Part shown: one piece after another, positions 14,308 through 18,344 of the stretch
Layout: the number at the start of each line of letters is the position of its first letter
Numbering within the stretch: the stretch's first letter is position 1
Assembly: GCF_003096095.1 (NCBI RefSeq)
Contig: NZ_CP015453.1
Location: 744,001-808,000, forward strand
From: Dietzia psychralcaliphila
GTDB taxonomy: Bacteria; Actinomycetota; Actinomycetes; Mycobacteriales; Mycobacteriaceae
Direction of reading: 5' to 3'
DNA length: 64,000 nucleotides
Notes under the pieces: generated by a model
Databases searched by the model: none
Told to the model about the DNA's origin: nothing
The model's input: the letters and a program-made list of their open reading frames with translations, nothing else
Position numbers and translations under genes: made by a program

Positions 14308-14832
14308 ATGAAGAAGATCACCAAGGGTGCGATCGCCCTCGGAGCGGCCGCGCTGCTCCTTGCCGGCGGCGCTGGAACGATGGCGGCGTGGAGCGACGAG
14401 GCAAGCCTCGGTGGCGGCGAGGTCACCGCCGGCCATCTGCGCATCACCGAAGCGGCCGCGGGTGCGTGGACCTGGGCTGACGGTGAGACGTTTGACCCGG
14501 CCACGGACCTGATCGTTCCCGGTGACGTCGTCGAGTACACCGCCTCCTATGATCTCGATGTCGCGGGCACCAACCTCGTCGCCACGCTTACCCCGACTCT
14601 CGGCGGCATTGATGAGACCGGCCTCGGCCAGTACCTGACCGTCGACGCACAGTCGGACACGACAGGCATCACGCTCGGCAACATCACCGAGGCTAACGAC
14701 GGCGACACCGTCGAGGTGACCACCACCATCACGTTCGACTCGGACACCATGGACCAGGACGGTATGGATCTGACGGCCAACCTCGCCGGTTCGACGATCA
14801 CGCTCGAGCAGACCGCTCCGGCGAGCAACTGA
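14308..14832 (+). CDS. Alternate (SipW-type) signal peptide exported protein 1
   Basis: The 174-residue protein starts with KK, a hydrophobic segment and the motif GTMAAWSDEASLGGGEVTAG, the SipW-class signal in which processing occurs before or at the AxWSD region and a conserved Gly follows about ten residues later. It resembles the actinobacterial alternate-signal family typified by Rhodococcus (TIGR04089-like, from memory). The mature domain is acidic, Thr-rich and predicted all-beta, with no Cys, like TasA/camelysin-type fibre subunits; that comparison is inference. ATG 14308 has an AGAGGAAG ribosome site. It is the first gene of a tightly packed operon with two signal peptidases. Confidence 0.8.
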   Translation: MKKITKGAIALGAAALLLAGGAGTMAAWSDEASLGGGEVTAGHLRITEAAAGAWTWADGETFDPATDLIVPGDVVEYTASYDLDVAGTNLVATLTPTLGGIDETGLGQYLTVDAQSDTTGITLGNITEANDGDTVEVTTTITFDSDTMDQDGMDLTANLAGSTITLEQTAPASN

Positions 14833-14846
14833 TCTGAGCTGATCAA

Positions 14847-15386
14847 GTGATACCCGCTCATCTTCGTTGGTCCCTAGCGGCAGCTGCTGTCGCGGGGGTG
14901 TCCGTCTTGTCCGTGCAGCAGACCGGTGCATTATGGAGCGATTCTGCGGAGTCGCCCGGGGCGACCATCAGCTCCGGCCGGCTCGACATCTCTGTCGGCA
15001 CGTCCGAGACCCGGACGGAGGCGTACGGGTTCGCCGATCTGGCGATGGAAGACATGATGAGTGGCGACTCTGTGCAGCGCCCGCTGCACGTGCACAACAC
15101 CGGCAGTGTCGCCATGCAGTACCGGTTGGTTTCGGCTGAACTCGGTGCGGATCTGCCGCTAGATCTGCGGGTCGCCGCGGTGTCCTCCGAGTCCGAATGT
15201 CTGGGCTCGGGGGACACCGCTGGCAGCACGCTGTACTCGGGCGCCCTGCCGTCGGCGTCGACCGCCGACCGCGACCTCGCGGCCGGTGCGTCAGAGATCG
15301 TGTGCTTCCGGGTGGAGATGGTCGACGACCCGACCGCCGGCGAAGAGGGCGCTGCCGTCTTCACGTTTCAGGCGACGCAGTCATGA
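14847..15386 (+). CDS. SipW-type signal exported protein 2
   Basis: A 179-residue protein with an N-terminal hydrophobic segment followed by QTGALWSDSAESPGATISSGRLDI, matching the WSD...G motif of its neighbours. The mature part is a small beta-domain with HNTGSVAMQYRL and a Cys pair (SECLG, IVCFRV) that could form a disulfide. GTG 14847 lies 14 bp after the previous stop and the ribosome site is weak. It overlaps the first signal peptidase gene by ATGA, so enzyme and presumed substrate are translationally coupled. Confidence 0.75.
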   Translation: MIPAHLRWSLAAAAVAGVSVLSVQQTGALWSDSAESPGATISSGRLDISVGTSETRTEAYGFADLAMEDMMSGDSVQRPLHVHNTGSVAMQYRLVSAELGADLPLDLRVAAVSSESECLGSGDTAGSTLYSGALPSASTADRDLAAGASEIVCFRVEMVDDPTAGEEGAAVFTFQATQS

Positions 15387-16003: not shown

Positions 16004-16601
16004 CAGGCGGATCGGCGGCGGGAAGCGGTCCGGGCCGCGGAACCTCCGTGGTGGACGTGCGTGGGCGTATGCCCGCGGCGGGTTGACGGTCGGGATCGTT
16101 CTGGGCGCCGGCGCGGTCGGCACGATGGCGGCCTGGTCGGATTCGGCCACGGCGGTGAGTGGAAATTTCAGCGCCGGAGAAGTCGAGGTGGTGAACCTCG
16201 AAATCAATGGTGATGCCCCCGTCCATCAGTTCCTCACGATGAATCGCAGTAGCGTGCTCCGTGGCCAGAGTGCGGCGGGATCGCTCGACGTCCAAAACAC
16301 CGGCACGGCCGATCTCACTTGGTCGATGTCCGCCGGGGCGAGCGGTGCGCAGGAGCTGACCAGCGTGCTGACGGTGGGTCTGTATTCCGGGGCGGGCAAC
16401 AACGGCTTCACCTGTTCGGGTCAGCAGATCGGGTCGACGCTGGCGATGTCGTCGTCGCCGACCCTCGCGACCGAGAGGCCTCTCGCGAGCGGGGCGTCCG
16501 AAGAGGTGTGTGTGCAGGTGACGGTTCGATCCGATGCGGGAATCGCGGCCCGCTTCAAGATCGCGAATCCGACGTTCCAGTTCGTGGCAGAGGGGGCGTG
16601 A
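15990..16601 (+). CDS. SipW-type signal exported protein 3
   Basis: The 203-residue product has a longer basic N-terminus, a hydrophobic stretch and GTMAAWSDSATAVSGNFSAG, very close to the motif of protein 1. The mature region resembles protein 2: DVQNTGTADLTWSM and a Cys pair (FTCSG, VCVQV). I prefer ATG 15990 because GGAGA lies 6 bp upstream; ATG 15984 is possible. The gene begins inside the end of signal peptidase 1 and touches the start of signal peptidase 2 (TGATG). Confidence 0.75.
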   Translation: MTTSDRRIGGGKRSGPRNLRGGRAWAYARGGLTVGIVLGAGAVGTMAAWSDSATAVSGNFSAGEVEVVNLEINGDAPVHQFLTMNRSSVLRGQSAAGSLDVQNTGTADLTWSMSAGASGAQELTSVLTVGLYSGAGNNGFTCSGQQIGSTLAMSSSPTLATERPLASGASEEVCVQVTVRSDAGIAARFKIANPTFQFVAEGA

Positions 16602-17200
16602 TGGCGATGGCCGAGCAGTCGACCACCCCGACTGACACCTCCCGGGCGGACCGTCGTGATCGGGTCCGCGAGCTGATCCTCAACGTGGGGGCCGTGGTCG
16701 GACTCGTCTGCATCGTGGTCGCTGCGCTCTCGATGCTGCTCGGGGTGACCCCACTTGTCTTCCGGTCAGGTTCGATGTCGCCGGAGATCCCGACCGGGTC
16801 CCTGGCACTGGCCCGGTCGGTGCCGGCATCGGAGATCGCCGTAGGCGATGTGGTGAGTGTGGACAACCAGCAGGGAGTCCGCATCACCCATCGCGTGGTT
16901 GACCTGGCCGCAGCGCCGGCTGATAGCGGCGTCGTGGCGACCCTGCAGGGCGATGCCAACCCGGTCCCGGACGTATCGCCGTACGTGTTCGACCACGCAG
17001 ATCGGGTGTTCTTTCACGTTCCGGCGATCGGATACGCGGTGGGTTGGCTGACGAGCCCTGTCGCGATCTTCTTCGGGGGCGCGCTCGTCGGCGCCGTGGT
17101 GGTCCTGGCGGCCGGGTACGGCCCAGCGCCGCGCCGGGCCGAACGACCAGAAGACGACGACAACTTCAGTTCCGAAGCTCAGGAGGGGCACCGTGCGTGA
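16601..17200 (+). CDS. Signal peptidase I, SipW/ER type, copy 2
   Basis: A 199-residue second SipW-class peptidase: one transmembrane segment near residues 25-48, serine box FRSGSMSPEIPTGS, histidine box RITHRVVD, GDANPVPD, and a C-terminal transmembrane segment. It is clearly diverged from copy 1, so the pair is not a fresh duplication. Each follows its own WSD-type substrate gene, which suggests two enzyme-substrate modules. Confidence 0.88.
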   Translation: MAMAEQSTTPTDTSRADRRDRVRELILNVGAVVGLVCIVVAALSMLLGVTPLVFRSGSMSPEIPTGSLALARSVPASEIAVGDVVSVDNQQGVRITHRVVDLAAAPADSGVVATLQGDANPVPDVSPYVFDHADRVFFHVPAIGYAVGWLTSPVAIFFGGALVGAVVVLAAGYGPAPRRAERPEDDDNFSSEAQEGHRA

Positions 17201-18344
17201 TCACACACCGATCAGGGCTCGCATGACGTCGTGGCGTATCGCGATAGCGACTGTCGGCGTCGCCGCGATGGCGGTGACCCTGGGGCAGTCCGTGTCGACT
17301 CTCGCCAATCCCAATGAAGCGGTCTCAACTGAAGGCTCCCAGATCGCTACGGGCAACTTCTTCCCGACGCCGCTGGTTACTAATATCCGGTGTTCTACTA
17401 AATCAGGATTTCTTTGGCAGAATTCTACCGTGAGCTGGGATCCTCCCACACCCGCCCCGGGATTGGAATCACAGACGTATCGATACCGGGTGGACTGGGC
17501 AAACGGTAACGGCGAGGTCTTTAGGAGCTACGAGACCAACGAGACATCATCGGGCGAAATCCAGGTCGGCGTAACCGCCAGGACCACGCGTATCCGCGTT
17601 CATACAATCAACCCAAACGCGCCGGGAATCGTATCCTCTGGCTTCAGTAGCCATACTGTTTATTCATCGACCATCACCTATACCTATTGCACCGGTGACC
17701 CACGGTACGACGCCCCGAACCAGCCATGGGAGAACACCTCCGAGTGGAACCCGGCGCTGCCAGCACCCGCGTCGGCCGGGCAGCAGACCGTGGTGATGGC
17801 TCAACGCTCGGGGCTGGCAGCCGACGTCGAGCAGGTGGAAGAAGACCAGGCTGAAGTGGTCGCGGTGGCCGGGGCGGAGTCGTCCGAGGAGACGCGTGCC
17901 CCGACCGCCAACGAGACGAGCGAGGCGTCGCCGTCGCCGTTGTCGACGCCTGCGGTGACTGCGCGGCCGCCAGCAACTTCGCGCTCTACTGTGACAACGG
18001 TGCCGAGTCCATCGGCGACCGCGACACCGTCGACCAGAGCGAGATCCGCGCCGACGCCGACGCCGACGCCGACGCCGACATCGACCCACACGCCGTCGAC
18101 TTCTCCCCTCGCGATCACGACCACGACGCAGGCGCCGAGCACACCGGTGCGTCTATCCGGCGGAGGAGAGGCCGAGATCGCCGACGACACCAGGCTGGTG
18201 GTCTCCGGCGCGGGTGCACCGAAGTGTTCGGTCCTGGTCCGCAAGGGTTCGACACTTGAGGTACGGGATGGCGTCCTCGAAGTGACCGATGCGGTCGAGA
18301 CCCGGGCCGTGGATCCGGAGTCGTGCGTACTGACCAAGATCTAG
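17193..18344 (+). CDS. Exported FN3-like, Thr/Pro-stalk surface protein
   Basis: The 383-residue product is translated from GTG 17193 behind AGGAGGGG, overlapping signal peptidase 2 by 8 bp. After a hydrophobic segment, STLANPNEAVSTEGSQIATGNFF looks like a diverged SipW-type motif. Residues about 60-170 form a fibronectin-III-like domain (VSWDPPTPAPG, YRYRVDW). Then follow a charged segment, a Ser/Thr/Pro stalk with TPTPTPTP encoded by five GCCGAC units (18050-18079), and a compact C-terminal domain with two Cys. The FN3-like part has AT-rich codons (AAA, TTT, AAT, TCT) unlike its flanks. No anchor is visible. I infer a surface-exposed component processed by the adjacent peptidases. Confidence 0.65.
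   Translation: MRDHTPIRARMTSWRIAIATVGVAAMAVTLGQSVSTLANPNEAVSTEGSQIATGNFFPTPLVTNIRCSTKSGFLWQNSTVSWDPPTPAPGLESQTYRYRVDWANGNGEVFRSYETNETSSGEIQVGVTARTTRIRVHTINPNAPGIVSSGFSSHTVYSSTITYTYCTGDPRYDAPNQPWENTSEWNPALPAPASAGQQTVVMAQRSGLAADVEQVEEDQAEVVAVAGAESSEETRAPTANETSEASPSPLSTPAVTARPPATSRSTVTTVPSPSATATPSTRARSAPTPTPTPTPTSTHTPSTSPLAITTTTQAPSTPVRLSGGGEAEIADDTRLVVSGAGAPKCSVLVRKGSTLEVRDGVLEVTDAVETRAVDPESCVLTKI

What the first reader, a model, noticed from the sequence alone, without database searches (positions are those of the whole stretch)
14308..18344. Two SipW-class signal peptidases interleaved with their presumed substrates
Seen: operon order substrate 1, substrate 2, peptidase 1, substrate 3, peptidase 2, stalk protein, all overlapping or nearly so. 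Both peptidases carry Ser (SSMEPTL, SGSMSPEIP) and His (THRI, THRV) rather than Lys. Substrates share AxWSD...G signals. Known: SipW processes TasA-type fibre proteins in Bacillus; actinobacterial alternate-signal families have no clear role. Inference: two dedicated peptidase-substrate modules build a cell-surface fibre or layer, with the Ig-repeat proteins as cargo or tip. Two peptidases in one operon is unusual.
Basis: partly seen in the sequence, partly recalled or inferred. Interest (0 to 1): 0.72.

Follow-up and report, generated by a model that had tools for sequence, protein, structure and literature searches.

The report
Two-peptidase TasA-like fibre operon
This bacterium carries a compact gene set that probably exports and trims the building blocks of a surface fibre with two dedicated scissors-like enzymes, and in many relatives one of those enzymes is made as a single protein together with what looks like a substrate of its own.

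Summary
Confirmed: three SipW-type signal proteins (S1, S2, S3), two Ser-His signal peptidases (SP1, SP2) and a 'stalk' gene lie overlapping or nearly so at 14308-18344 of a Dietzia chromosome. (1) The two-peptidase layout is not unusual: of 80 SP1 loci (best 80 of 538 relatives), 72 had room to judge; 40 have SP2 nearby, each with S3, and 26 have neither. SP1 and SP2 are separate old lineages. (2) Predicted S1 and S3 folds have the TasA fibre first or near first, with middling scores, and the S1 family keeps W28, P71 and Q168 (69 of 70 rows each), matching the TasA interface residues F29, P62 and Q232. This favours a donor-strand fibre. (3) In 34 of 58 SP2-type rows the peptidase is fused to a secreted tail, and 32 of the 34 have a SipW-type cleavage motif in between: the enzyme carries its own substrate. 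The window's stalk looks like the split-off tail, with a degenerate signal. The Ig-repeat proteins have ordinary signals and are probably not part of it. Cleavage, enzyme-substrate pairing and polymerisation are inferred, not shown. New variant of a known kind.

The parts
14308..14832 (+). S1: exported beta-sandwich protein with SipW-type signal (GTMA|AWSD); probable main fibre subunit; TIGR04089 (RER_14450-type) family
14847..15386 (+). S2: second SipW-type substrate (QTGA|LWSD), homologous to S3
   Evidence: hhalign S3 vs S2 profiles prob 99.7, E 2e-26; W30 invariant in 17 of 17 rows; below the TIGR04088 cut-off
15383..16003 (+). SP1: ER/SipW-type signal peptidase (Ser62, His103, Asp123/129)
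   Evidence: TIGR02228 87.8 bits; profile hit SEC11A/C 1e-13; invariants in A1; 88 SP1 rows form one side of a branch, support 100
15990..16601 (+). S3: SipW-type substrate (GTMA|AWSD) with long basic n-region and conserved Cys pair
16601..17200 (+). SP2: second SipW-type signal peptidase, distinct lineage; fused to a secreted tail in many relatives
   Evidence: TIGR02228 62.4 bits; tree; fused relatives
17193..18344 (+). Stalk: leader (STLA|NPNE, degenerate SipW type), beta-rich domain, Pro/Thr-rich linker, small C-terminal domain (layout read by eye); related to the SP2 tail
   Evidence: 8-bp overlap with SP2; hhalign stalk vs fused tails prob 96.8, E 2.6e-10 over 80 columns; T36 and A38 of the leader invariant in 13 of 13 rows
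13432..14121 (+). UP: conserved upstream secreted protein, lipobox-like (ATAGC) in Dietzia; candidate anchor (tentative)
   Evidence: UP at 60 bits or more in 11 of 80 SP1 loci, all Mycobacteriales

Best explanation
The operon builds a TasA-like, donor-strand-exchanged surface fibre. S1, S2 and S3 are exported by Sec with a signal ending T-x-A|x-W. The Trp at P2' probably does two jobs: it makes the site poor for the ordinary Lep peptidase, so that a Ser-His SipW-type enzyme is needed, and after cleavage it is the second residue of the mature protein, where in TasA the aromatic F29 docks into the next subunits. Cleavage would therefore both release the subunit and expose its donor strand. SP1 most likely serves S1/S2, and SP2 most likely serves S3 and the stalk. 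The stalk (a domain with a long linker, preceded by a leader of the same kind) would start, cap or anchor the fibre, as TapA does for TasA. In many relatives SP2 and this protein are one polypeptide, so the enzyme carries the cleavage site of its own substrate. Shown here: gene order and overlaps, family membership, catalytic residues, conserved motifs, co-occurrence, fusion, predicted folds. Inferred: cleavage, enzyme-substrate pairing, polymerisation, the role of the stalk.
Against: In the window itself the TasA interface set is complete only in S1: S2 has SGD in place of PGD, S3 has RG in place of PG and lacks the terminal Gln. Across S3, P91 is kept in 34 of 42 rows and the terminal Gln in 15 of 42. 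Fold scores are middling: several rows of similar Z are not fibre proteins; for S1 Foldseek gave no match at E 0.001 or better, and 8aur had TMq 0.40 and rmsd 9.8. The S1 profile has no sequence hit to TasA. Cleavage-site composition is alike for S1, S2 and S3, so nothing at residue level assigns them to different peptidases. Split stalks keep T-x-A in 14 of 14 but have an aromatic P2' in only 1 of 14 (read by eye), so the window's stalk may be cut by Lep instead. The curated signal model finds only 5 of 34 fused proteins.
Confidence: 0.6

Rival explanations
1. The three substrates are secreted beta-sandwich proteins that stay monomeric (adhesins, ligand binders or enzymes of the cell wall), and the SipW-type signal only controls release.
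For: Middling fold scores that include glycosidase and adaptor domains; window S2 and S3 lack parts of the TasA interface set.
Against: TasA fibre is among the first structural matches for both models, and P71 and Q168, far from the signal, are as invariant in S1 as the signal Trp (69 of 70 each).
Confidence: 0.2
2. The two peptidases are redundant or act on the whole SipW-type secretome; the pairing is operon history, not specificity.
For: Same T-x-A|x-W motif in all substrate classes; the same genome has two more SipW-type peptidase loci with substrates of their own, so enzymes could cross-process.
Against: SP1 and SP2 are separate, long-lived lineages, and none of the 40 SP2 cases lacks S3 while 26 SP1 loci lack both.
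Confidence: 0.3
3. The tail fused to SP2 is not cleaved: SP2 is a membrane base that displays the stalk and holds the fibre at the cell surface, and the split form is a second membrane protein.
For: The extra hydrophobic segment, present in 33 of 34 fused rows, could be a permanent anchor; split stalks lack the aromatic P2' in 13 of 14.
Against: 32 of 34 fused tails keep a SipW-type motif after the peptidase, which a permanent anchor would not need.
Confidence: 0.25

Closest known systems
tapA-sipW-tasA operon of Bacillus subtilis
   Same: Ser-His signal peptidase encoded with SipW-type substrates (PMC9674648, passages); subunits here have a TasA-like predicted fold and, in S1, its interface residues; an accessory protein encoded next to the peptidase
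   Different: Two peptidase lineages and four SipW-like leaders; below the curated cut-offs for SipW of Bacillus (85.7 and 47.6 vs 190) and for TasA; the accessory protein follows SP2 and is fused to it in relatives
TIGR04089 (exp_by_SipW_III, RER_14450-type alternate-signal proteins)
   Same: S1 is a member (142.8 bits, cut-off 60)
   Different: S2, S3 and the stalk are not; I recall no role given for the model; two name searches of the paper library gave no paper
Archaeal bundling pili AbpX / AbpA
   Different: Sequence match weak (E 0.025); archaeal; their operons were not examined
Chaperone-usher pilins (FimA, PapG pilin domain, Csu)
   Same: Similar predicted Ig-like fold
   Different: No usher or PapD-type chaperone family among the ten proteins scanned here

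Membership tests
TIGR02228 signal peptidase I (archaeal/ER/SipW type) | Score above curated cut-off 51.85 | tested here: met
   SP1 87.8, SP2 62.4 bits
TIGR02228 signal peptidase I (archaeal/ER/SipW type) | Ser-His-Asp catalytic residues rather than Ser-Lys | tested here: met
   S62, H103, D123, D129 invariant in 12 of 12 SP1 rows; S47, H86, D106, D112 invariant in 34 of 34 fused SP2 rows, same letters in the window's SP2; SEC11 alignment
NF046067 SipW of Bacillus (equivalog) | Score above cut-off 190 | tested here: not met
   85.7 and 47.6 bits
TIGR04089 alternate-signal exported protein, RER_14450 type | Score above cut-off 60 | tested here: met
   S1 142.8 bits, residues 1-168; S2 (22.0) and S3 (17.2) are below
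TIGR04088 SipW-cognate signal | Score above cut-off 19 | tested here: met
   S1 23.4, S3 25.4; S2 15.9 is below; the stalk had no match
TasA (NF046066) / camelysin (PF12389) | Curated score cut-off | tested here: not met
   S2 12.9 vs 450 and 14.4 vs 22.5; S1, S3 no match up to E 1
Donor-strand fibre of TasA type (works like) | TasA-like fold | tested here: inconclusive
Donor-strand fibre of TasA type (works like) | Interface residues F29, P62, Q232 | tested here: met
   For the S1 family: 69 of 70 at each of W28, P71, Q168. Incomplete in the window's S2 and S3
Donor-strand fibre of TasA type (works like) | Polymerisation through the cleaved N-terminus | not testable with these tools
   Needs purified protein or cryo-EM
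TapA-like initiator (stalk) | Recognisable TapA/YqxM sequence family | tested here: not met
   No such match for P0006 up to E 1 in NCBIfam and no Pfam match

The most novel reading that the evidence does not exclude
Across Actinomycetota a chaperone-free donor-strand fibre is nucleated by a self-processing signal peptidase: the enzyme carries, after its second membrane span, a SipW-type signal and the fibre's initiator or anchor domain, cuts this itself, and so makes one initiator per peptidase molecule; in lineages such as Dietzia the two halves are overlapping genes instead.
Probability: 0.35. Interest if true: 0.8.

Novelty: new variant of a known kind. Interest (0 to 1): 0.62.

Why it matters
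SipW-type signals of Actinomycetota have curated family models, but the listings of my paper searches showed no paper that gives them a role. If the reading is right, many actinobacteria, mycolate-coated ones included, make a TasA-like fibre, which can be tested directly by microscopy. The conserved Trp would explain why the signal class extends past the cleavage site: the residue that keeps Lep out would also be the residue that locks subunits together. A signal peptidase fused to its own substrate did not appear in those listings either, and would be a convenient self-contained system for studying signal-peptide cleavage by human-like (Sec11-type) enzymes.

Tried and rejected
Recent tandem duplication as the origin of the two peptidases: rejected; 88 SP1 rows fall on one side of a branch with support 100 (quick tree, SH-aLRT only). 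Catalytically dead second peptidase (pilus-chaperone type): rejected; Ser, His and both Asp are kept in the window's SP2 and in 34 of 34 fused relatives. Camelysin protease activity for the substrates: no family match above cut-off. Ig-repeat proteins as part of the system: set aside. Direct sequence link of S1 to TasA: none found. Promoter and terminator scan of 13000-20200: no promoter-like site; 5 terminator-like sites against 2.6 expected, none in the stalk-IG1 gap. TIGR04088 as an independent test of fused tails: 5 of 34 at E 0.1, so the fusion claim rests on the motif count and its shuffles. Direction of fusion versus splitting: not settled; the labels need 7-8 changes on the tree. The 'split' set includes 8 rows from other Dietzia SipW loci, 2 extra Aeromicrobium copies and L108, whose peptidase genes each lie in two overlapping frames. 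Long-frame peptidases outside this operon (L145-L164) were chosen for their long frames, so they give no frequency. One family row carries a cyanobacterial name that I take for a name look-up error; it is counted among the 40 but not used for taxonomy. SP1 and SP2 distances correlate weakly (rho 0.31, 42 loci, 0 of 2000 permutations as high), which shared ancestry alone would also give. Seven locus duplicates (L047, L048, L050, L051, L053, L056, L057 = named loci) were dropped before the tree and fusion counts. Literature: 10 of 10 searches used. I saw listings only, complete for and partial for the rest (25 of 215, 10 of 63, 10 of 22, 12 of 288, 8 of 1,422); none of the titles or abstract starts shown described this operon or a peptidase-substrate fusion. 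Papers opened: PMC10269814 (abstract, Discussion), PMC10151520 (abstract page, Discussion part 1 of 2), PMC9674648 and PMC11952670 (passages), PMC13082335 (abstract and outline, not used). Foldseek on the S3 model was not run; VIA was used.
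Full report
What is there. Six + strand genes run from 14308 to 18344 in the order S1, S2, SP1, S3, SP2, stalk, with gaps or overlaps of at most 14 bp. S1 is a TIGR04089 protein, S1 and S3 pass the SipW-cognate signal model, S2 falls short of it; SP1 and SP2 pass TIGR02228. Both peptidases have Ser and His in the Sec11 positions and the conserved Asp pair. The genome's Lep-type peptidase, in contrast, has Ser and Lys (L007, my reading).

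How common it is. The same genome has four peptidases above the TIGR02228 cut-off at three loci. In a search of 61 genomes (the window's own and 60 relatives), a strong SP1 relative (over 170 bits) occurs in 8 of 23 same-genus genomes; in 7 of these 8 a second peptidase lies about 1.1-1.3 kb away, and in the eighth (G005) the contig ends. I searched these 80 loci with profiles built from Dietzia and its kin. Of 72 loci with room to judge, 40 have SP2 (100 bits or more) within 4.5 kb and all 40 also have S3; 26 have neither; 6 have an S3-like gene without such an SP2; the other 8 of 80 have too little sequence downstream. S1 is within 4.5 kb in 76 of 80. The pair occurs in Mycobacteriales, Micrococcaceae (4 of 4) and Nocardioidaceae (22 of 26 informative), whereas no SP2 was seen in the informative loci of Microbacteriaceae (10), Brevibacteriaceae (6) or Promicromonosporaceae (5). 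In L070 and L108 the modules S1-S2-SP1 and S3-SP2 face each other on opposite strands, and in L068 the S3-SP2 module comes before S1-S2-SP1. This is the best evidence for two modules. In a quick maximum-likelihood tree of 146 peptidase domains all 88 SP1 rows fall on one side of a branch with support 100.

A sharper test is at residue level. In TasA filaments F29 of one subunit, with P62 and Q232, forms a 'proline box' at the subunit interface, said to be the most conserved part of TasA and camelysin alignments (PMC10151520, Discussion part 1). The S3 profile aligned with 8aur places its PG on P62-G63 and its terminal ATQ on Q232 (numbered from mature residue 28; E-values there are weak). In the 70-row S1 alignment the corresponding residues are W28 (69 W, 1 F), P71 (69), G72 (67), D73 (66) and Q168 (69). 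In S3, P91 is kept in 34 of 42 rows and the terminal Gln in 15 of 42; the window's own S3 has R and G there. In S2, P72 is kept in 11 of 17 and Q178 in 12 of 17; the window's S2 has S and Q. So S1 is the best candidate for the main subunit.

Why a special peptidase. P2' is aromatic in nearly all substrates: W in 69 of 70 S1, 17 of 17 S2 and 41 of 42 S3 alignment rows (larger sets). Musik and colleagues report that TasA is cut poorly by E. coli LepB, that aromatic P2' residues were absent from 143 verified LepB sites, and that a Trp at P2 also contributes (PMC10269814, abstract and Discussion). The window's substrates have Trp at P2', not at P2. The archaeal fibre protein AbpX, a weak profile match, aligns from its second residue as W-S-E. 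I infer that the aromatic residue serves both exclusion of Lep and docking in the fibre.

Peptidase fused to substrate. In many relatives SP2 is one long open frame. Of 58 non-duplicate SP2-type rows, 34 have more than 120 residues after the peptidase and 24 do not. A further hydrophobic stretch after the peptidase is found in 33 of 34 fused rows, and a SipW-type motif lies in the first 110 residues of the tail: T.A.[WFY].D in 23 of 34 and a looser form in 32 of 34, against shuffle means of 0.13 and 4.4 (maxima 2 and 12); the same search in the last 110 residues finds 1 and 2. The misses are L074 (Leu at P2') and L106. Pfam finds fn3 in 3 of 34 and Laminin_G_3 in 1 of 34. The curated signal model recognises only 5 of 34. 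The window's stalk, overlapping SP2 by 8 bp, matches these tails over leader and the next 50 or so residues (hhalign 96.8, E 2.6e-10, 80 columns); part of that score may come from leader-type similarity alone, so its place right after SP2 is the second argument. Split stalks keep T-x-A in 14 of 14 but an aromatic P2' in 1 of 14 (by eye). That difference is unexplained: either the split protein is now cut by Lep, or it no longer needs the docking residue.

What is not shown. No cleavage, fibre or enzyme pairing was observed. The motif is alike in S1, S2 and S3, so specificity of SP1 and SP2 is inferred from gene context only. All loci were found through SP1. The tree is a quick one and does not settle whether fusion or splitting came first.

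Novelty. The parts are known kinds: SipW-type peptidases, SipW-type signals, TasA-like folds. The two-peptidase operon with a peptidase-substrate fusion did not appear in the listings of the ten literature searches made here, five of which I saw only in part. I file it as a new variant of a known kind.

Noticed in passing
L067:4409-4954 (-), L070 near 7503-8321, L108:7775-8302: Next to the operon in three Prescottella-type rhodococci lies an S1-domain protein; the L067 and L108 copies match the S1 profile only from about position 19-20, without the leader, and the L067 copy begins after a lipobox-like LLTSAC and a linker. It could be a membrane-anchored receiving end of the fibre.
   Followed up: partly
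13432-14121: UP, a secreted protein upstream of S1, is found at 60 bits or more in 11 of 80 loci, all Mycobacteriales; Dietzia copies mostly have AAGC/TAGC lipobox-like motifs, others ordinary signals.
   Followed up: partly
13432-14121, 18623-20128, 20137-24522: UP, IG1 and IG2 all end in Gly/Ser-rich tails, some with GSLGS- or SSLG-like motifs, as do UP relatives; a shared envelope-targeting tail is possible.
   Followed up: no
18623-20128 and 20137-24522: IG1 and IG2 share a very similar N-terminal region of about 150-170 residues (by eye) ahead of Big_3_5 repeats.
   Followed up: no
L045 (G000:C1:3066000-3076000), L046 (G000:C1:3226000-3240000): Two further SipW-type loci in the same genome, each with S3-like substrates; L045 has a 571-aa protein with TEATWSDQ directly after the peptidase, the same layout as SP2-stalk.
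   Followed up: partly
L099 and L134 (Aeromicrobium): Doubled modules with five SipW-type peptidases in a row (S1-SP1-S3-SP2-SP2'-S1-SP1-S3-SP2).
   Followed up: no
L150, L151, L154 (also long tails in L148, L152, L153, L155, L156, L164): Other actinobacterial SipW-type peptidases outside this operon have long tails; L150, L151 and L154 show GAAFSD, AARFSD and SARFTS segments after a hydrophobic run (loci chosen for long frames; no family search run on the tails).
   Followed up: partly
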